38,929 nt of DNA. Source: Clostridiales bacterium. GTDB taxonomy: Bacteria; Bacillota; Clostridia; Lachnospirales; Lachnospiraceae. Made by a program: the position numbers and the translations under genes. The notes below the pieces were generated by a model. The model saw only the letters and a program-made list of their open reading frames with translations, had not been told where the DNA came from and did no database searches. Of the stretch, positions 32,718 to 38,929 are shown in pieces (the first letter of the stretch is position 1; each line of letters starts with the position of its first letter). Where the stretch lies: positions 1 to 38,929 of the forward strand of contig JAJBVD010000019.1 of the NCBI GenBank assembly GCA_020859985.1, read 5' to 3'.

Positions 32718-33029
32718 ATGGGCTACTTTTACGACACCTACCTGGGCTACCGCAGGAAGCAGTGGCTCCGGAGCATTTACTCCGTGCAGGTACTCGTCGG
32801 GAGCACCTGGCACACGGGAACGATCGACTCGAAGAAAATCAGCGACGACTCCCTGATCTTTTTCGTGACCTTCCCCGACCTAAACGACACCGCCTGCACG
32901 ATCACAGCCTCGCGGCTCATTGACGTGCGGGGAGAGGTGGCAGCGTATCAGCAGCGGACGATCACGAAAGTGGCGGGCCAGGGGATGCTGATCAAGATCA
33001 CGATCCCGATCTATGAAGTCACAAGCTAA
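32718..33029 (+). CDS. Small distal tail protein, unknown
   Basis: A 103-residue protein; ATG 32718 follows AAAGGAGG by eight bases and is preferred to the ATG at 32700 that precedes the ribosome binding site. It opens with GYFYDTYLGYRRKQWLRSIYS and then alternates short strands (SLIFFVTFPDLNDTACTITA). No family is recognised. It sits between gpI and the variable tail-tip genes, so it is probably a fibre or adaptor component. Confidence 0.6.
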   Translation: MGYFYDTYLGYRRKQWLRSIYSVQVLVGSTWHTGTIDSKKISDDSLIFFVTFPDLNDTACTITASRLIDVRGEVAAYQQRTITKVAGQGMLIKITIPIYEVTS

Positions 33030-33050
33030 AGGAAAGGAGGAACCCCGAAA

Positions 33051-33476
33051 ATGTATAACGCTACAAAATGGCTCGATCAGGTGGAGGACGCCGACACCGG
33101 CGAGGTGATCCAGGAAGGCACCGACCAGAGCGCCGCACACTTCAACAACATGGAGGAAGGGATCAGCGACAGCGACCTCGCCGCCCGCCTCATGCTCCTG
33201 ACACTGAGCCGGACGATCGACGAGGTAGACACCGAAGTGCAGACGGTAACGCTCACCAACTCGCTGAGCTACCCGTTCAACAACTCGGCAACCACCGTCT
33301 CGCTGGAGACGGCCAGGAACGACACCAGCTACACCGTGGAGGCCACCGTCGGCGACCACGAGGGCTGCGTCGGGGACGTGACCGTGTACGATCAGGCCCT
33401 GAACGGCTTCAAGATAAAATTCGACGGCAGCGCCACGAGCGCCACCATCACGCTGAGAATTAAAGGAGGTTTGTAA
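33051..33476 (+). CDS. Distal tail / fibre-like protein, unknown
   Basis: A 141-residue protein. The N-terminus (MYNATKWLDQVEDADTGEVIQEGTDQSAAHFNNMEEGI) resembles the start of many Clostridia phage tail fibre proteins. The C-terminal half is beta-rich (QTVTLTNSLSYPFNNSATTV, SATSATITLRIKGGL) like a small fibre head or an adaptor. AAAGGAGG lies upstream. The adjacent genes make a tail-tip cassette with the DGR target. Confidence 0.6.
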   Translation: MYNATKWLDQVEDADTGEVIQEGTDQSAAHFNNMEEGISDSDLAARLMLLTLSRTIDEVDTEVQTVTLTNSLSYPFNNSATTVSLETARNDTSYTVEATVGDHEGCVGDVTVYDQALNGFKIKFDGSATSATITLRIKGGL

Positions 33477-33478
33477 TC

Positions 33479-33814
33479 ATGGCAAACAGCGTCAAAGTTA
33501 TTGAAAAGAACACCGGCGAGAAGATCCAGTGGGAGCAGGACGGCTACTACCTGAGCTTCGACGACGGGGCCCTGGCCATTAAGGCCACGAAATACCAGCT
33601 CGACAACGAGAACACGGTGGATATCTGCCGAAACAAGCAGGGCAACCTCGTGATCGGCGTCCCTGAGAACGGCCGCTATGTGGCCCAGGTGACGATCCCG
33701 GCCGCGACCTACACCACCGAAACCACCGGAGAAGGCGAGGACGCCACCCAGACGAGGACGAAGGACGACCTCGACATGGGCGACGTGACGCTCACCCTCT
33801 GGAGCATTGAATAA
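33479..33814 (+). CDS. Small tail-tip cassette protein, unknown
   Basis: A 111-residue protein only two bases after the previous stop, with AAAGGAGG upstream. It is beta-rich (VIEKNTGEKIQWEQDGYYLSF, LVIGVPENGRYVAQVTIP) with an acidic Thr-rich loop. No family is recognised. It directly precedes the DGR target gene and may bridge it to the fibre. Confidence 0.55.
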   Translation: MANSVKVIEKNTGEKIQWEQDGYYLSFDDGALAIKATKYQLDNENTVDICRNKQGNLVIGVPENGRYVAQVTIPAATYTTETTGEGEDATQTRTKDDLDMGDVTLTLWSIE

Positions 33815-33839
33815 ACAGCCATAGAAAGGAGACAACATC

Positions 33840-34922
33840 ATGGCAAATTTTGATCTTTCCAGTCTGGCACTGAAAGCAGTGTGCCCGAACAACTCAATTT
33901 TTACGGACGACACCGACCTGCCCTCCGTCATGGTTTACATTCCGAAGTTTAAGAACTCCGACGTGCTGACCGGCGGGGACGACAGCACCCACCCGGCCTT
34001 CATTGTGAACGGCTCGGAGATTGACGGCTTCTACTACTCCAAGTACCAGAACATGTGCTACAACAGCGTGGCCTACAGTCTGCCGGGCGAGGATCCGCAG
34101 GCTTCGATCAACTTCGAGACGGCGATCTCGCGCTGCGAAGCCAAGGGCAACGGCTGGCACCTCTCCACCAACGCAGAGTGGGCCGCGATCGCTCTCTGGT
34201 GCAAAGCGAACGGCTTCCTCCCGTATGGCAACAACAACTACGGCAAGGACACCAGGGAGAGCAATTACAAGGCGATCCCGTCTTATACGGACAGTAGCGG
34301 GAACACCTGCCGAGTGGCAACCGGCACCGGCCCGCTCACCTGGAGCCACGACGGCACACCGTCCGGGATCTGGGATCTGAACGGTAACGTCCGGGAATGG
34401 CAGGGCGGCATCCGTCTTGTATACGGCGAGCTCCAGATCCTCGAAAACAACAACGCGGCGGATCCGGACAACCCGCAGAACTCCACAAGCACATGCTGGA
34501 TGGCGATCGACGCCAGCACCGGCGAGCTGATCACTCCGGACGGCTTCGGCACGACTTCCGGCTCCGTGAAGCTGGATTATATCAGCAGCAAGTGGACGTA
34601 CTCCACCGCGATCACCGACGCGTCCGACACCTCACGCTCCTGCCTGTTTGATAACGTGACCTACGACGACACGATCGGCGACGACACCCTGGTGCTGCTG
34701 CGTGCCCTGGCTCTCCTGCCTGACTCCGACGCGGCCGCCGCTGACTACGAGGGCGACTACATGTGGTGGAATAACGCCGCAGCAGAGCGCTGCGTCTATC
34801 GCGGGGGCCACTGGGGCAACGGCCCGTACGCAGGCGTGTTCTCCCTGAGCGGCAGCAACGCCCGCTCCTTTTCCAGCACGAGCATCGGCTTCCGCTCCGC
34901 TTATATTCCGGAAATCGGGTAA
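33840..34922 (+). CDS. DGR-diversified tail-tip protein (FGE/C-type-lectin fold)
   Basis: A 360-residue receptor-binding candidate. After a ~30-residue lead, residues ~30-350 follow the formylglycine-generating-enzyme-sulfatase form of the C-type lectin fold: FYYSKYQN, ISRCEAKGNGWHLSTNAEWAAIALW, DLNGNVREWQGG and the C-terminal RCVYRGGHWGNG leading to IGFRSA. This fold is the commonest scaffold for DGR variable proteins. The last ~38 codons are the VR. Ten codons differ from the template (residues 324, 326, 329, 330, 335, 337, 339, 344, 346, 348), all on the expected ligand-binding face of the fold. It has AAAGGAG upstream and probably displays on the distal tail to bind the host surface. Confidence 0.92.
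   Translation: MANFDLSSLALKAVCPNNSIFTDDTDLPSVMVYIPKFKNSDVLTGGDDSTHPAFIVNGSEIDGFYYSKYQNMCYNSVAYSLPGEDPQASINFETAISRCEAKGNGWHLSTNAEWAAIALWCKANGFLPYGNNNYGKDTRESNYKAIPSYTDSSGNTCRVATGTGPLTWSHDGTPSGIWDLNGNVREWQGGIRLVYGELQILENNNAADPDNPQNSTSTCWMAIDASTGELITPDGFGTTSGSVKLDYISSKWTYSTAITDASDTSRSCLFDNVTYDDTIGDDTLVLLRALALLPDSDAAAADYEGDYMWWNNAAAERCVYRGGHWGNGPYAGVFSLSGSNARSFSSTSIGFRSAYIPEIG
34787..34901 (+). repeat. DGR variable repeat (VR)
   Basis: 115 bp aligning without gaps to the TR 584 bp downstream. The 5' 22 bp and the 3' 19 bp are identical between copies. The 12 mismatches lie at 34809, 34815, 34816, 34824, 34827, 34843, 34849, 34855, 34869, 34870, 34876 and 34882; every one is A in TR (changed to C three times, G six times, T three times). 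The identical 3' end is the probable initiation-of-mutagenic-homing site. Confidence 0.97.
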
Positions 34923-34944
34923 TCTGGCAATCTGAAAATCTGGC
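34921..34944 (+). repeat. Three tandem 8-bp repeats just 3' of the VR gene
   Basis: AATCTGGC, AATCTGAA, AATCTGGC in exact tandem, beginning at the stop codon of the variable gene and ending just before a 10-bp hairpin. This short spacer shows no coding sequence. Confidence 0.75.
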
Positions 34945-34946
34945 AC

Positions 34947-34972
34947 GAGGGGCGGCTCCAACGCCGTCCCTC
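34947..34972 (+). other. Hairpin/cruciform candidate downstream of VR
   Basis: GAGGGGCGGC (34947-34956) pairs with GCCGTCCCTC (34963-34972), 10 bp with one G-U/G-T, loop of six. Some DGRs need a hairpin or cruciform just 3' of VR for homing; this one is 45 bp away, further than in BPP-1. No T-run follows, so it is not an obvious terminator. Confidence 0.6.
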
Positions 34973-34993
34973 TACCATGGCAAGGAGTAGAAC

Positions 34994-35338
34994 ATGGATA
35001 ACCTACAACTGCGGCAGCGTATCACCAGGAGCATGATCCGGGTGAATGAACGCACCGCCAACATGAGAAAGCCGGAGAAATTCGAGTACCGCAGCCGCCT
35101 GACAGCAGCCTACCTGGATATGCTGGAGCTCTGCATTGAGGCCAACCGCTCACGCGGCCAACGGAGGACAACCCTCCAGAACCGCATGGACGTGAAGCTG
35201 GACGTGCTGCGGACTCTGATCGACACGGCAGTCTCTTCGGAGGATCGTCTGATCTCTCCGGGGCTCCACGAAGTATGGAGCAAAGAGCTGAACGAAATCG
35301 GGCGTATGCTCGGCGGCTGGATCAAGTCGGACGAGTAG
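34994..35338 (+). CDS. avd: Avd, DGR accessory variability determinant
   Basis: A 114-residue basic, all-helical protein resembling the Avd/23S-rRNA-IVP four-helix bundle: LRQRITRSMIRVNERTANM, then YRSRLTAAYLDMLELCIEANRS, MDVKLDVLRTLIDTAVSS and WSKELNEIGRMLGGWIKSDE as four helices. Avd forms a pentamer that binds the RT and template RNA and is needed for adenine mutagenesis. It lies between VR and TR, the classic position. AAGGAG precedes the ATG. Family identity rests on length, helix pattern, basic charge and synteny. Confidence 0.88.
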   Translation: MDNLQLRQRITRSMIRVNERTANMRKPEKFEYRSRLTAAYLDMLELCIEANRSRGQRRTTLQNRMDVKLDVLRTLIDTAVSSEDRLISPGLHEVWSKELNEIGRMLGGWIKSDE

Positions 35339-35370
35339 AAACCCGTGGGGAATATGTCGAAAAAAAGGAG

Positions 35371-35485
35371 GCGCTGCGTCTATCGCGGGGGCAACTGGAA
35401 CAACGGCACGAACGCAGGCGTGTTCTACCTGAACGGCAACAACGCCCGCTCCAATTCCAACACGAACATCGGCTTCCGCTCCGCT
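35371..35485 (+). repeat. DGR template repeat (TR)
   Basis: 115 bp, the donor of the VR. It contains 26 adenines, many at the first two positions of AAC/AAT codons in the VR reading frame (NWNNGTN, YLNGNN, SNSNTN), which permits wide amino-acid change while avoiding stops. 12 of the 26 adenines are altered in VR, and none of the 89 non-adenines. The frame through TR can be read but is interrupted downstream. Confidence 0.97.
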
Positions 35486-35580
35486 CTTGCTTTATTCGTA
35501 AATATCCTGCGGGCCAAGGCTCAGCAGGGACAACAAAGCAAAAGGGACGTATTTCCCGGCTGACAAAGTCAAAGATGAAC

Positions 35581-35622
35581 GCCCGTGCGGCTCGCTGGTG
35601 GAGGCCACCAGGAGCGGCGGGC
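35581..35622 (+). other. Stable hairpin in the TR-RT spacer
   Basis: GCCCG/CGGGC at the base, a small internal loop, GCTC/GAGC, a bulged G, then CTGGTGG/CCACCAG (35595-35601/35605-35611) capped by AGG. About 16 pairs in all, starting 96 bp after TR; a likely structural part of the template RNA. Confidence 0.65.
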
Positions 35623-35702
35623 AAACCGCGCAGGCTGGCCGTTCCCTGCATGGGTGAAGGACAACCGGCACACTGCGGAGCGGCGTCCACAGCTTCGGCC
35701 GG

Positions 35703-35737
35703 TGGCCCAAGGAGTGTCACACGCGGGCCAATTTTTT
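35703..35737 (+). terminator. Intrinsic terminator between TR and RT
   Basis: TGGCCC (35703-35708) pairs with GGGCCA (35725-35730), with an inner GTG/CAC pair in the loop, and T6 follows at 35732-35737. It would end the template RNA and lower RT expression. Confidence 0.6.
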
Positions 35738-35759
35738 GAATTTTGGAGGAAGCAAAGGC

Positions 35760-36731
35760 ATGAACGAGGAACACCAAGGCACACTCCTGGAGCGCATTTA
35801 CTCCTGGGAGAACCTGCTGGAAGCGTACCACGAGGCCGCACGCGACAAGTGGTATCGCAACGACGTGACAGCCTTCGCCGCCCGCCTGGAGGAAAACCTG
35901 ATCAGCATACAGAACGACCTCATGTGGCGCACCTACACCGTGGGACGCTATCGCCAATTCTATGTAACAGAGCCGAAGAAACGGCTCGTCATGGCGCTGG
36001 GCTTCCGGGATCGCGTCGTGCAGTGGGCCATATATCGGCAAATAAACCAGGAACTCGACAACGGCATGATCTACCACAGCTACGGCTGCCGGGTAGAGAA
36101 AGGAACCACAAGGGCGGCCGACCGGCTGCAATACTGGTGCACCCTGGTGGATCGCAAGCCTGAGCGCTGGCACTACTTAAAACTGGATATTTCAAAATAT
36201 TTTTACCGGGTAGATCACGAAGTGCTGCTCGGTATTTTACGGCGTAAATATCCGGACGAGGACGGCCTGCTCTGGCTCATGGAAACGATCATAAACTGCG
36301 ACCACACGCCCTTCGGGCTGCCGCCTGGGAAAAGCGCCGACGAGGTGCCGCCGTCTGAGCGGCTCTTCGAGGTGGGTATGCCGATCGGAAATCTCACCAG
36401 CCAACTGCTGGCGAACGTCTGCCTCAATGAGCTGGATCAGTATATAAAGCACGAGCTCAAATGCCATTTTTACGTCCGATACATGGACGACATGGTGCTG
36501 CTGGCCGAAGAGGCCGCAACGCCGAACGAGTGGCGGGTGCTGATCGAGGACTACCTGAACCGGATCCTTCACCTGGAACTAAACAGCAAGACCACGATCG
36601 GCCTCGTATGTCGTGGGATCACGTTCGTGGGCTGCCGGATCTATCCGGGCTACCGGAAACCGACACCCAACACCGTGCGCAAAATGAAGGCGCGTATGCG
36701 CTACATTGCCAAGGAATACGAGGCGGCCTGA
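35760..36731 (+). CDS. DGR reverse transcriptase (zero frame, C-terminus frameshifted)
   Basis: A 323-residue RT. ATG 35760 with GGAGGA nine bases upstream is preferred to the TTG at 35736, which lies in the terminator T-run. Motifs in order: FYVTEPKKRLVMALGFRDRVVQ (~67-88), LKLDISKYF with Asp 143, the DGR-specific MPIGNLTSQ (207-215), YVRYMDDM with catalytic Asp 243-244, and TFVGCRIYPGYRKP. IGNLTSQ in place of the usual QGxxxSP marks the DGR group. The frame ends at TGA 36729-36731, but homologous thumb sequence continues in the -1 frame. It copies TR RNA into adenine-mutagenised cDNA for replacement of VR. Confidence 0.93.
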   Translation: MNEEHQGTLLERIYSWENLLEAYHEAARDKWYRNDVTAFAARLEENLISIQNDLMWRTYTVGRYRQFYVTEPKKRLVMALGFRDRVVQWAIYRQINQELDNGMIYHSYGCRVEKGTTRAADRLQYWCTLVDRKPERWHYLKLDISKYFYRVDHEVLLGILRRKYPDEDGLLWLMETIINCDHTPFGLPPGKSADEVPPSERLFEVGMPIGNLTSQLLANVCLNELDQYIKHELKCHFYVRYMDDMVLLAEEAATPNEWRVLIEDYLNRILHLELNSKTTIGLVCRGITFVGCRIYPGYRKPTPNTVRKMKARMRYIAKEYEAA

Positions 36732-36886
36732 TCGACTTCGACGCCGTGGACGCTACCATGCAGAGCTACTTCGGTATGCTCGGCCATTGTGCGGCCTACG
36801 GGCTGAAAACGTGGATCAGCGAAAACATAATTTTTAAACGAGGGGACGGGGATCCGTCCGGGGAGGTGGAAACATGGACACAATAA
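36725..36886 (+). pseudogene. Out-of-frame C-terminal segment of the DGR RT
   Basis: In the -1 frame, directly overlapping the RT stop, the reading GLIDFDAVDATMQSYF then GMLGHCAAYGLKTWI runs to TAA 36884-36886. This pattern (SY-x-G-x2-x-HC-x2-YGL) is the thumb/C-terminal end of DGR RTs. One extra base near GCGGCC at 36724-36728 would restore a single ~375-residue protein. No canonical slippery heptamer is seen. It may be a natural mutation, a sequencing indel, recoding, or a split protein. Confidence 0.75.
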
Positions 36887-37236
36887 GCACAATTTTGATC
36901 GCCTGCGTACCGTCGGGGGTGACCGCTTTTTGCTTCTGGCTGATCGAGCAACGGATCCAGAAGCAGGGCAAGGCCAGGGAGGCCGAAGATCTCAAACGCC
37001 AGGAGGCTGAGGAAAAGCGGGAAAAGATCCGAGAGCAGCAGGAGCTTCTCCTGGTGCAAGGGGTAAACGCAGCGATCACGCTCGGCGAAGCAACCGCAAA
37101 GGCCGTCGAACGGATCCCCGACGCTCACTGCAACGGGGACATGCACGCGGCCCTGGAGTATGCCAGCAAGATCAAACACGAGCAGCGCGACTTCCTGACG
37201 CACCAGGGCGTGGAGAGTATCTACGACAACGACTGA
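36874..37236 (+). CDS. Membrane-anchored coiled-coil protein, lysis-region
   Basis: A 120-residue protein with an N-terminal hydrophobic helix (residues ~4-23, ISTILIACVPSGVTAFCFWL), a charged coiled coil (~25-60, rich in Glu, Lys, Gln, Arg) and a hydrophilic C-terminal part. GGGGAGGTGG precedes the ATG, which overlaps the RT fragment. Such proteins commonly precede holins in Gram-positive phages, but the function is unknown. It could be a holin regulator. Confidence 0.65.
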   Translation: MDTISTILIACVPSGVTAFCFWLIEQRIQKQGKAREAEDLKRQEAEEKREKIREQQELLLVQGVNAAITLGEATAKAVERIPDAHCNGDMHAALEYASKIKHEQRDFLTHQGVESIYDND

Positions 37237-37249
37237 GGGAGGCAATGAC

Positions 37250-37534
37250 ATGAAGAAAAAGCAGGAGAAAAAAATCAGCTTCATGGACACGGCGCTCGTG
37301 CTCATGGCGGTGGCTGCCGTCGTGTTCACGCTGAAAATGATCCAGCTCTATGAGCTGACCGGGGCGATCCCGGACACGCTCGTGCAGTGTGTGTTCACAG
37401 CACTGACCGGTGAAGCCGGTTTTATGGCCGTAATCATGCGGCAAAAAATCAAGGAGCGCTCCCAGAATAAGGAGCAAAACCAGAAGGAACCCGAACCGGA
37501 TCCGGAAGGAGCCGGGGACGTTTCCAACGACTAA
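37250..37534 (+). CDS. Holin-like small membrane protein
   Basis: A 94-residue protein with a basic start (KKKQEKK), a hydrophobic helix at ~12-33 (TALVLMAVAAVVFTLKMIQL), a second weaker helix at ~42-62 (TLVQCVFTALTGEAGFMAVIM), and a charged Lys/Glu/Pro tail. This is the usual layout of class II holins and it lies directly upstream of the endolysin gene. GAGGGAGG is close before the ATG. Function is inferred from topology and position. Confidence 0.7.
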   Translation: MKKKQEKKISFMDTALVLMAVAAVVFTLKMIQLYELTGAIPDTLVQCVFTALTGEAGFMAVIMRQKIKERSQNKEQNQKEPEPDPEGAGDVSND

Positions 37535-37551
37535 GACCAAGGAGGGGTAAT

Positions 37552-38929
37552 ATGGCACTCACTGGATCAAACAACGCCGAGAAAATCTGGAACTATTTAC
37601 TCGGCAAGGGCCTGACCGCCTACGGCGTGGCCGGGCTCATGGGGAACCTATACGCAGAGAGCGGGCTCGAACCCGCCAACCTGCAAAACACCTACAACAC
37701 CAAGCTCGGCATGACGGACGCCGAGTACACCGCCGCCGTGGACGCGGGAACCTACACCAACTTCGTGAAGGACTCTGCAGGCTACGGCCTGGCACAGTGG
37801 ACGTACTGGAGCCGCAAGGAGGCGCTGCTGGCTTACGTGCAGGCCGCCGGTGCTTCCGTGGGCGACCTGGAGACACAGCTCGGCTTCCTCTGGAAAGAGC
37901 TCAGCGGCTACACGGCCGTGCTCACCGTGCTGAAATCGGCCACCAGCGTGAAGGAGGCGTCCGACAGCGTGCTGACCGGCTATGAAAAACCGGCCGATCA
38001 GTCCGACACCGTAAAAACCAAGCGTGCAGGCTACGGCCAGACCTACTACGACAAGTACGCGGACACGGCCAGCTCCGGCACCACTACCCAGACAGGAGGC
38101 ACCACCATGGGAAAAACAATCACCACAGGAAACATCACCGACAAGATCAACGGGATCACCGTCAACACGTCGAAGCCGTGCAGCTCCGGGAATTATGACA
38201 ACCTGAGCAGCCGCGAGGTGGCCTACATCGTCATGCACTACACTGGAAACAGCAAGGACACGGCGAAGGCCAACGCGAACTACTTCCAGACCTCCGGCCG
38301 CAACGCGTCGGCCCACCTCTTCGTGGACGACTCGGAGATCTACCAGAGCGTGGAGCTCAGGGACAAAGCCTGGCACTGCGGCACGTCCGGCACCTACTAC
38401 CACGACTCCTGCCGCAATGCGAACTCGATCGGGGTCGAAATGTGCTGCACGGCCGGAAACTACAAGATCAGCGACACGACCAAGGAGAACGCGGCGTATG
38501 TCTGCGCATACCTCTGCAACCTCCTGGGGATCACGGCCGCGAAGGTTGACACCTACGTGCTGCGCCATTATGACGTGACACACAAGAACTGCCCGGCACA
38601 AATGGCCGGATCCAGTAACTCGGAGTGGACGGCCTTCAAGGAAATGGTGAAGAACATCATAAACACCGGCAACGCTTCCGGGACAAGCTCCAGCAGCTCC
38701 AGCTCCGGCAGCACGTCCGGATCCACGACCTACTATGTGCAGACCGGGGCCTTCTCCAAAGTGGCAAACGCCCAGGCGCTCGTGACGAAGCTCAAAGCGG
38801 CGGGCTTCGACGCAATCGTGAAACAGTCCGGCAGCCTCTACAAAGTGCAGGCGGGGGCCTACTCCAGCAAGAGCAACGCCCAGGCGCTCGTGACGAAGCT
38901 CAAAGCGGCGGGCTTCGACGCAATCATAA
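37552..38929 (+). CDS. Modular endolysin: tail-lysozyme, amidase, SPOR (3'-partial)
   Basis: The 459 residues visible run off the window; the last base belongs to an incomplete codon. Domain 1 (~5-160) is a Phage_lysozyme2-type muramidase: NAEKIWNYLLGKGLTAYGVAGLMGNLYAESGL (Glu ~36 catalytic), then GYGLAQWTYWSRKEALLAY. Domain 2 (~215-365) is an Amidase_2: VMHYTGN, NASAHLFVDD, and RHYDVTHKNCPAQM with His/His/Cys zinc ligands. A Ser-rich linker leads to a SPOR domain with two near-identical halves (TYYVQTGAFS and LYKVQAGAYS). ATG 37552 follows AAGGAGGGG. An internal in-frame ATG at 38107 with its own AGGAGG may make a shorter amidase. SPOR binds denuded peptidoglycan. Confidence 0.93.
   Translation, partial: MALTGSNNAEKIWNYLLGKGLTAYGVAGLMGNLYAESGLEPANLQNTYNTKLGMTDAEYTAAVDAGTYTNFVKDSAGYGLAQWTYWSRKEALLAYVQAAGASVGDLETQLGFLWKELSGYTAVLTVLKSATSVKEASDSVLTGYEKPADQSDTVKTKRAGYGQTYYDKYADTASSGTTTQTGGTTMGKTITTGNITDKINGITVNTSKPCSSGNYDNLSSREVAYIVMHYTGNSKDTAKANANYFQTSGRNASAHLFVDDSEIYQSVELRDKAWHCGTSGTYYHDSCRNANSIGVEMCCTAGNYKISDTTKENAAYVCAYLCNLLGITAAKVDTYVLRHYDVTHKNCPAQMAGSSNSEWTAFKEMVKNIINTGNASGTSSSSSSSGSTSGSTTYYVQTGAFSKVANAQALVTKLKAAGFDAIVKQSGSLYKVQAGAYSSKSNAQALVTKLKAAGFDAII
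38107..38929 (+). CDS. Possible internal-start amidase-SPOR product of the endolysin
   Basis: Within the endolysin linker, AGGAGG (38094-38099) precedes an in-frame ATG at 38107 by seven bases. The product begins MGKTITTGN and covers the amidase and SPOR domains only. Internal starts that make truncated lysins acting as cell-wall-binding subunits are known in Clostridium phages. A Gly-Gly codon pair could make the ribosome-site sequence by chance, so this is a candidate only. Confidence 0.45.
   Translation, partial: MGKTITTGNITDKINGITVNTSKPCSSGNYDNLSSREVAYIVMHYTGNSKDTAKANANYFQTSGRNASAHLFVDDSEIYQSVELRDKAWHCGTSGTYYHDSCRNANSIGVEMCCTAGNYKISDTTKENAAYVCAYLCNLLGITAAKVDTYVLRHYDVTHKNCPAQMAGSSNSEWTAFKEMVKNIINTGNASGTSSSSSSSGSTSGSTTYYVQTGAFSKVANAQALVTKLKAAGFDAIVKQSGSLYKVQAGAYSSKSNAQALVTKLKAAGFDAII
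38767..38925 (+). repeat. 51-bp perfect direct repeats in the SPOR coding region
   Basis: 38767-38817 and 38875-38925 are identical over 51 bp, spaced 108 bp (36 codons). They encode the repeated NAQALVTKLKAAGFDAI half of the SPOR domain. The second copy runs to within four bases of the window end. Confidence 0.9.

What the first reader, a model, noticed from the sequence alone, without database searches (positions are those of the whole stretch)
34787..36731. Complete phage diversity-generating retroelement targeting a tail-tip C-type-lectin-like protein
Seen directly: a 115-bp VR at the 3' end of a tail gene and a 115-bp noncoding TR 584 bp downstream differ at 12 positions, and every difference is an adenine in TR (26 adenines, 89 other bases). 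If mutations fell at random, all 12 hitting adenines has a simple probability of (26/115)^12, about 2 in 10^8. Gene order is VR gene, avd, TR, RT. The RT has the DGR-specific IGNLTSQ motif and YMDD. Ten codons have been altered, mostly AAC/AAT codons. This combines a myovirus, a lambda-type head and a hypervariable FGE-fold tip protein; it probably changes host range.
Basis: partly seen in the sequence, partly recalled or inferred. Interest (0 to 1): 0.95.

Follow-up and report, generated by a model that had tools for sequence, protein, structure and literature searches.

The report
Phage mutation cassette with broken enzyme
This is a gut-phage cassette that rewrites the end of a phage surface protein through adenine-targeted copying, a kind already described in a close relative; here the copying enzyme's reading frame is broken near its end, and the rewritten site is followed by a short repeated DNA motif that may help mark it.

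Summary
In detail: VR 34787-34901 and TR 35371-35485 differ at 12 of 115 positions, all at TR adenines (hypergeometric 1.6e-9); order target, avd, TR, RT; target like the solved DGR protein TaqVP. It is a new member of a known kind: FP_Lagaffe has the same cassette (77.8% DNA identity), already in print (PMC5883640, PMC11792537). 'Complete' is wrong for this assembly: the RT frame closes at 36731 and its C-terminal segment lies in another frame; 50 of 54 relatives keep it in frame. The segment still looks constrained, so the break is recent or an assembly error. Relatives change: one pair differs at 16 of 3060 bases, all in VR at TR adenines. Less expected: between VR and hairpin lies a direct repeat (34921-34943), three RATCTG units in 24 of 26 close loci. 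Pooled 7-8-nt periodicity there is strong over 66-68 RT clusters but weak at stricter clustering, and BPP-1's own clade fails the per-locus test. A TCTG array follows Lagaffe's second target within coding DNA. I propose that it marks the recipient site.

The parts
33840..34922 (+). DGR target gene (360 aa), C-type-lectin/FGE-type variable protein with VR at its 3' end
   Evidence: PF03781 E 5.2e-7, over its cut-off; TaqVP 5vf4 E 1.7e-44 by sequence, Foldseek E 1.9e-22, TM 0.77 on a modest model
34787..34901 (+). variable repeat (VR)
34921..34943 (+). direct repeat AATCTGGC-AATCTGAA-AATCTGG (8-nt period), proposed VR-side recognition array
   Evidence: three RATCTG units at 8/8 spacing in 24 of 26 close loci (window included, near-copies not removed)
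34947..34972 (+). inverted repeat / potential DNA hairpin (10-bp stem with one G-T, 6-nt loop), 45 bp after VR
   Evidence: z -4.1 for the 33-nt stretch chosen around it, z -2.0 (9 of 200 shuffles as good) for the 92-nt intergenic stretch; position kept in most close relatives
34994..35338 (+). avd, accessory variability determinant (114 aa)
   Evidence: PF22296 E 3.5e-16; phrog_3206 'Avd protein of DGR'
35371..35485 (+). template repeat (TR)
35486..35759 (+). TR-RT spacer, structured RNA (counterpart of the BPP-1 spacer RNA)
   Evidence: 61-pair consensus in 13 sequences, 25 pairs with changes on both sides, 0 of 500 shuffles as high
35760..36731 (+). DGR reverse transcriptase ORF as it stands (323 aa), C-terminally truncated
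   Evidence: PF00078, phrog_1423, solved RT 8ub7 E 1.8e-39 (that 8ub7 is the BPP-1 enzyme is recalled); truncation
36725..36886 (+). displaced C-terminal RT segment, in another reading frame than 35760-36731

Best explanation
A diversity-generating retroelement of a Lagaffe-like phage. TR RNA with its folded 3' spacer (fold supported by covariation) would be bound by Avd and the RT, copied into cDNA with random bases opposite TR adenines, and the cDNA would replace VR in the 3' end of the lectin-fold target (adenine pattern shown; steps inferred from BPP-1). The recipient site is set apart from TR by what follows it: a 3-unit, 8-nt direct repeat and then a hairpin (both shown in sequence; role inferred). 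In this assembly the RT frame is broken near its C-terminus, so this copy is either recently inactivated or mis-assembled; the 89 non-adenine TR positions are all unchanged in VR, which points to homing in the recent past.
For: 12 of 12 differences at TR adenines. With equal penalty for all mismatches, 45 loci (window included; L166 duplicates L086) of 60 with RT identity >=40% gave a pair: 631 of 657 differences at an adenine of the downstream copy, 3 at an adenine of the upstream copy. L021 vs L088: 16 differences in 3060 bp, all in VR and at TR adenines, TR identical; L008 vs L010: 17 in 3060, 16 in VR, 13 of those at TR adenines. Spacer RNA covariation. Target TaqVP-like. RT like 8ub7. Lagaffe virion reads vary at VR (PMC5883640, passage).
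Against: RT frame break. No reads available, so activity of this copy is untested. 3 of 16 VR differences between L008 and L010 are not at TR adenines; L023 and L024 differ at 63 positions but at none in VR. PMC11792537 saw no activity signal in limited Lagaffe_CP reads (passage). The hairpin has a 6-nt loop 45 bp from VR, outside the 4-nt GRNA loop and 4-34 bp of Guo et al. 2011 (PMC3240598, passage).
Confidence: 0.95

Rival explanations
1. The frame break is real and the DGR of this copy is dead: the phage is fixed at its last VR until it recombines with an intact relative.
For: 50 of 54 relatives keep the C-terminal segment in frame, the window does not; L020 and L025 are broken too, near residues 291 and 279, so losses occur.
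Against: The displaced segment has no stop in its first 40 codons and near-normal constraint (syn:nonsyn 168:130 in 15 comparisons, against 1008:677 in 105 intact pairs); VR has no change at 89 non-adenine sites.
Confidence: 0.4
2. The frame break is a sequencing or assembly error and the RT is intact.
For: Same constraint data; draft assembly in 89 contigs; Lagaffe and Lagaffe_CP are said to differ by a single-nucleotide insertion (PMC11792537, passage).
Against: No reads to check.
Confidence: 0.5
3. The RT is made through ribosomal frameshifting, or works as two polypeptides.
For: The displaced segment is open and constrained.
Against: The 50 in-frame relatives need nothing of the kind.
Confidence: 0.05
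4. The post-VR direct repeat has nothing to do with homing: it is a signal for translation or transcription between target and avd, a leftover, or shared descent of one flank.
For: At 45% RT clustering 17 clusters remain, z is 2.6 (lags 3-4 score 2.5 there) and VR against TR is not significant (p 0.45); at 38%, 5 clusters give z 0.2; TR flanks reach z 2.7 at 60%. 69 of 99 rows, among them BPP-1 and its whole 10-row clade, do not pass z>2.
Against: A TCTG array follows the second target inside coding DNA, in three reading frames in Lagaffe and L221 and two in the other six, beyond synonymous-codon shuffles (8 of 8 loci, fractions 0 to 0.0055, at most five independent flanks). BPP-1's VR tail has a TGA chain at 8/7 spacing and its TR tail none.
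Confidence: 0.4

Closest known systems
DGR of Faecalibacterium phage FP_Lagaffe (MG711461/NC_047911; PMC5883640, PMC11792537)
   Same: Target-avd-TR-RT order, 115-bp repeats, FGE/lectin target, 77.8% DNA identity over 98% of 33800-36900, same direct repeat and hairpin position
   Different: Lagaffe RT is longer and in frame and there is a second target, gp40, with its own VR; no gp40 homologue was found in this assembly with the first target as query
Bordetella phage BPP-1 DGR (Mtd/Avd/Brt)
   Same: RT (32.7% identity), small avd-place gene, spacer RNA that recruits RT-Avd (PMC12875486, passage), hairpin after VR
   Different: BPP-1 hairpin is 4 bp after VR with a GAAA loop (passages); here 45 bp, 6-nt loop, with a long repeat between
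TaqVP, Thermus aquaticus DGR variable protein (5vf4; PMC6328139, search listing only)
   Same: Sequence and predicted fold of the target, VR at the same end of the alignment
   Different: About 30% identity; a Thermus protein

Membership tests
Diversity-generating retroelement | TR/VR pair differing at TR adenines | tested here: met
   family
Diversity-generating retroelement | DGR-type reverse transcriptase | tested here: met
   IGNLTSQ and YMDD (meaning of the motifs recalled)
Diversity-generating retroelement | RT intact over its full length | tested here: not met
   C-terminal segment out of frame in this assembly; bears on present function, not on descent
Diversity-generating retroelement | Avd or other accessory protein | tested here: met
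   PF22296, phrog_3206
Diversity-generating retroelement | Target with C-type lectin fold, VR at 3' end | tested here: met
   (model pLDDT 64, most of the VR part under 50)
Diversity-generating retroelement | Hairpin/cruciform after VR (GC-rich 7-10 bp stem, 4-nt GRNA loop, 4-34 bp away) | tested here: inconclusive
   10-bp stem with one mismatch present; loop of 6 nt and distance of 45 bp fall outside
Diversity-generating retroelement | Active mutagenic homing | not testable with these tools
   no reads; signs only in relatives (PMC5883640 passage)
Lagaffe-like phage group | Shared gene order and sequence with FP_Lagaffe | tested here: inconclusive
   DGR region 77.8%, similar gene order; genome-wide identity not computed

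The most novel reading that the evidence does not exclude
The DNA between VR and the hairpin carries a direct-repeat array of 3-5 short units with a 7-8-nt period and a lineage-specific core (ATCTG here; CTG, TTG, CTTT elsewhere, read by eye; TGA in BPP-1's VR tail). It marks VR as the recipient and is absent after TR, so that it, more than the hairpin, is the general form of the IMH/IMH* distinction; a repeating protein such as Avd (a pentamer, recalled) or an Avd-RT-RNA complex could read it.
Probability: 0.35. Interest if true: 0.75.

Novelty: new member of a known kind. Interest (0 to 1): 0.46.

Why it matters
How a DGR tells recipient from donor is still incompletely understood (PMC12875486, passage). 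A short periodic array beside VR, shared by two different target contexts of one phage and seen in several RT lineages, would give a directly testable recipient mark and a handle for finding remote targets. The broken RT is a caution against calling a DGR complete from TR and VR alone.

Tried and rejected
Considered and rejected: chance repeat; other VR copies in the assembly (none found); terminator as the reading of the hairpin (no T run after it, by eye; not assayed); the repeat as a set of stop codons in three frames (L107 and L135 show only one stop triplet, by eye); pairing of the repeat core with the avd-TR-RT stretch (no CAGAT in 34901-36900). Rfam found nothing in the window at gathering scores.

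Results against the array reading. The lag-7/8 score after the second target is not significant in 8 of 8 gp40-type loci (z 0.3-1.1; the distant L228 2.4), because spacing there is 7-9; only the TCTG count is. Lagaffe's second VR differs from TR at 6 of 90 non-adenine positions, so it is a less perfect adenine-only match. The replication set (98 loci, 82 with RT, 63 with TR/VR) gave just 2 new clusters at 60% RT identity; at 80% it gave 34 with lag 7 z 7.4 but lag 8 only 0.8, and a hairpin of 7 bp or more after VR in 11 against 8 after TR. These are mostly BPP-1-like, and singly BPP-1 and its 10-row clade do not pass z>2. Presence is scattered on the RT tree: 21 changes, at least 18 forced, 7 of 500 shuffles as low; bootstrap not settled. 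Of 22 viral stretches with the exact AATCTG motif, 8 (L204, L210, L212, L213, L214, L218, L219, L220) do not sit after a VR gene. The BPP-1 tail was chosen after seeing the pattern. In one search only 19 of 32 family loci have a perfect stem of 7 or more; the window's own stem has a G-T, and in some loci the VR call ended early.

Rows left out. One search listed 30 pairs; in 9 (L017-L018, L018-L095, L014-L015, L015-L092 and five with L089) the anchor slipped and VR and TR both show 58-69 differences, so I do not use them. One search used 13 of the 16 loci listed (L011, L096, L023 left out). The structure counted was derived from the same alignment, which favours it over slid versions. The target model is modest (pLDDT 64), so I did not place the ten variable residues on it.
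Full report
Observation. The pair is the longest repeat family of 33000-38929, and an 80-nt part of the A-wild-carded TR has no other match in the assembly. The window is bases 1-38929 of a 42,578-bp contig in a 3.8-Mb, 89-contig genome.

Identity. The upstream gene scores to FGE-sulfatase PF03781 (E 5.2e-7, over its cut-off), the small gene to bAvd PF22296, the last to RVT_1; PHROGs name Avd and reverse transcriptase. The target matches TaqVP 5vf4 from residue 28 to 356 (E 1.7e-44), and a predicted model matches the same entry (TM 0.77), although the model is weak in the VR part. The RT matches the solved RT 8ub7 (E 1.8e-39; BPP-1 by recall).

Relatives. FP_Lagaffe has the same cassette (77.8% over 98% of the query; annotation). 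Of 60 loci with RT identity of 40% or more, 45 (window included; L166 is a copy of L086) gave a TR/VR pair; 15 did not, 13 of them with too little sequence before the RT and two (L091, L169) without a visible pair. With equal penalty for every mismatch, 631 of 657 differences lie at an adenine of the downstream copy. Near-identical pairs show ongoing change: L021 against L088 differ at 16 of 3060 bases, all 16 in VR at TR adenines, with no TR change; L008 against L010 differ at 17, of which 16 are in VR and 13 of those at TR adenines. L023 and L024 are a counter-example: 63 differences in the region and none in VR. Nine of the 30 pairs are set aside because the anchor slipped.

Broken RT. The window RT ends at 36731. 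Among 54 relatives with identity of 45% or more (one cut locus, L054, set aside; duplicates not removed), 50 have the C-terminal SYxG segment in frame; L020 and L025 are broken, L169 has a variant motif in frame, L174 is unclear. The window's own segment lies in another frame at 36725-36886. Its first 40 codons have no stop, and over 39 codons synonymous to non-synonymous differences are 168:130 against 15 relatives, compared with 1008:677 in 105 intact pairs; the segment is less conserved than the RT core. So the break is recent or an artefact.

Donor RNA. The TR-RT spacer folds into a consensus of 61 pairs in 13 sequences; 25 pairs show changes on both sides, 0 of 500 shuffles reach that, and slid controls fall to 4-9 (the structure comes from the same alignment). 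The PLoS Genetics 2026 paper (PMC12875486, passages) says the BPP-1 spacer recruits the RT-Avd complex.

Recipient side. After the VR gene's end come three AATCTGNN units at 8-nt spacing and then a hairpin. Of 26 loci with RT identity of about 77% or more, 24 have three RATCTG units at 8/8 spacing; L096 has four at 7/8/8, and L020 is disrupted. Where a perfect stem of 7 bp or more is found (19 of 32 family loci), loops are 4-9 nt and the stem mostly starts 44-54 bp after VR, 28 bp in L026, L028 and L030, unlike the 4-nt GRNA loop at 4-34 bp in Guo et al. 2011 (passages). L008, L010 and L013 keep the repeat but have only a 5-bp stem, and their VRs still differ from one another at 11-22 positions with TR unchanged. 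This natural case suggests that the long hairpin may not be needed here. In BPP-1, by contrast, loss of the hairpin cut activity severely though not wholly (passages).

Wider. From 197 RT loci, 141 gave TR/VR pairs, in 68 clusters at 60% RT identity. Chains of three or more CTG at 7/8 spacing follow VR in 12 of 68 and TR in 0 of 68; shuffles give 0.03. Without any assumed core, autocorrelation of the VR-to-hairpin stretch peaks at lags 7, 8 and 15 (z 5.5, 6.4, 6.4), while TR flanks give 0.7, 2.0, 0.7 and a stretch 120 nt on gives 0.5, 0.5, 1.9; without the CTG group (n=56) it is 3.6, 4.7, 3.0. A hairpin with 7 bp or more follows VR in 25 of 68 and TR in 5. With dinucleotide shuffles, a fixed 45 nt and all loci pooled, 66 clusters give z 8.2 after VR and 2.7 after TR; VR exceeds TR in 40, is lower in 23, ties in 3 (p 0.006). 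At 45% clustering, 17 clusters give 2.6 and p 0.45; at 38%, 5 clusters give nothing. On the tree 30 of 99 rows pass z>2, including 10 of the 14 rows of the window's clade but none of the 10 in BPP-1's.

Two further lines. Lagaffe's second target, gp40, known from PMC11792537 (passages), has VR2 inside the gene, with 6 of 90 non-adenine differences from TR. Right after VR2, TCTG occurs 3-5 times in 52 nt in 8 of 8 loci (at most five independent flanks), in two or three reading frames, more than synonymous-codon shuffles give (fractions 0 to 0.0055). In BPP-1 the VR tail has TGA three times at 8/7 spacing and the TR tail has no such chain; shuffles reach this in 0.5%. That stretch overlaps the end of the annotated VR, where the IMH lies (passage). 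It was looked at after the pattern was known.

Print. Searches for a repeat of this kind beside VR listed no paper describing it, as far as titles and abstract starts show, and passages of PMC3240598, PMC10743442, PMC4372165, PMC5006420, PMC12875486 and PMC8144416 speak of hairpins, IMH or cis-acting elements, not of such a repeat. Subscription papers are not held and no paper was read whole, so I cannot say it is unpublished.

Verdict. The cassette is a well-supported DGR of a known phage group with a broken or mis-assembled RT. The repeat array is the part worth following.

Noticed in passing
L083:31141-31255 (FP_Lagaffe gp40) and L221-L227: Second DGR target with its VR inside the gene, followed by a TCTG array in coding DNA; no homologue was found in this assembly with the first target as query.
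   Followed up: yes
L008, L010, L013: Relatives with a shortened hairpin but continuing VR change.
   Followed up: partly
L020, L025: Two further relatives whose RT frame is broken; in L020 the end of the target gene looks disrupted as well.
   Followed up: no
L198:3480-4526 (contig C4 beyond the window): Transposase/integrase-like ORF with HTH_38 and an rve match below cut-off, in the place of Lagaffe's IS30-family gp37.
   Followed up: no
38730-38817 and 38838-38925: Two repeats 86% identical within the SPOR part of the endolysin gene.
   Followed up: no
L002 (G000:C6:40449-40883): A second, weak RT match (35%) elsewhere in the assembly.
   Followed up: no
L091: RT 82% identical but no TR/VR pair seen within the searched region.
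   Followed up: no
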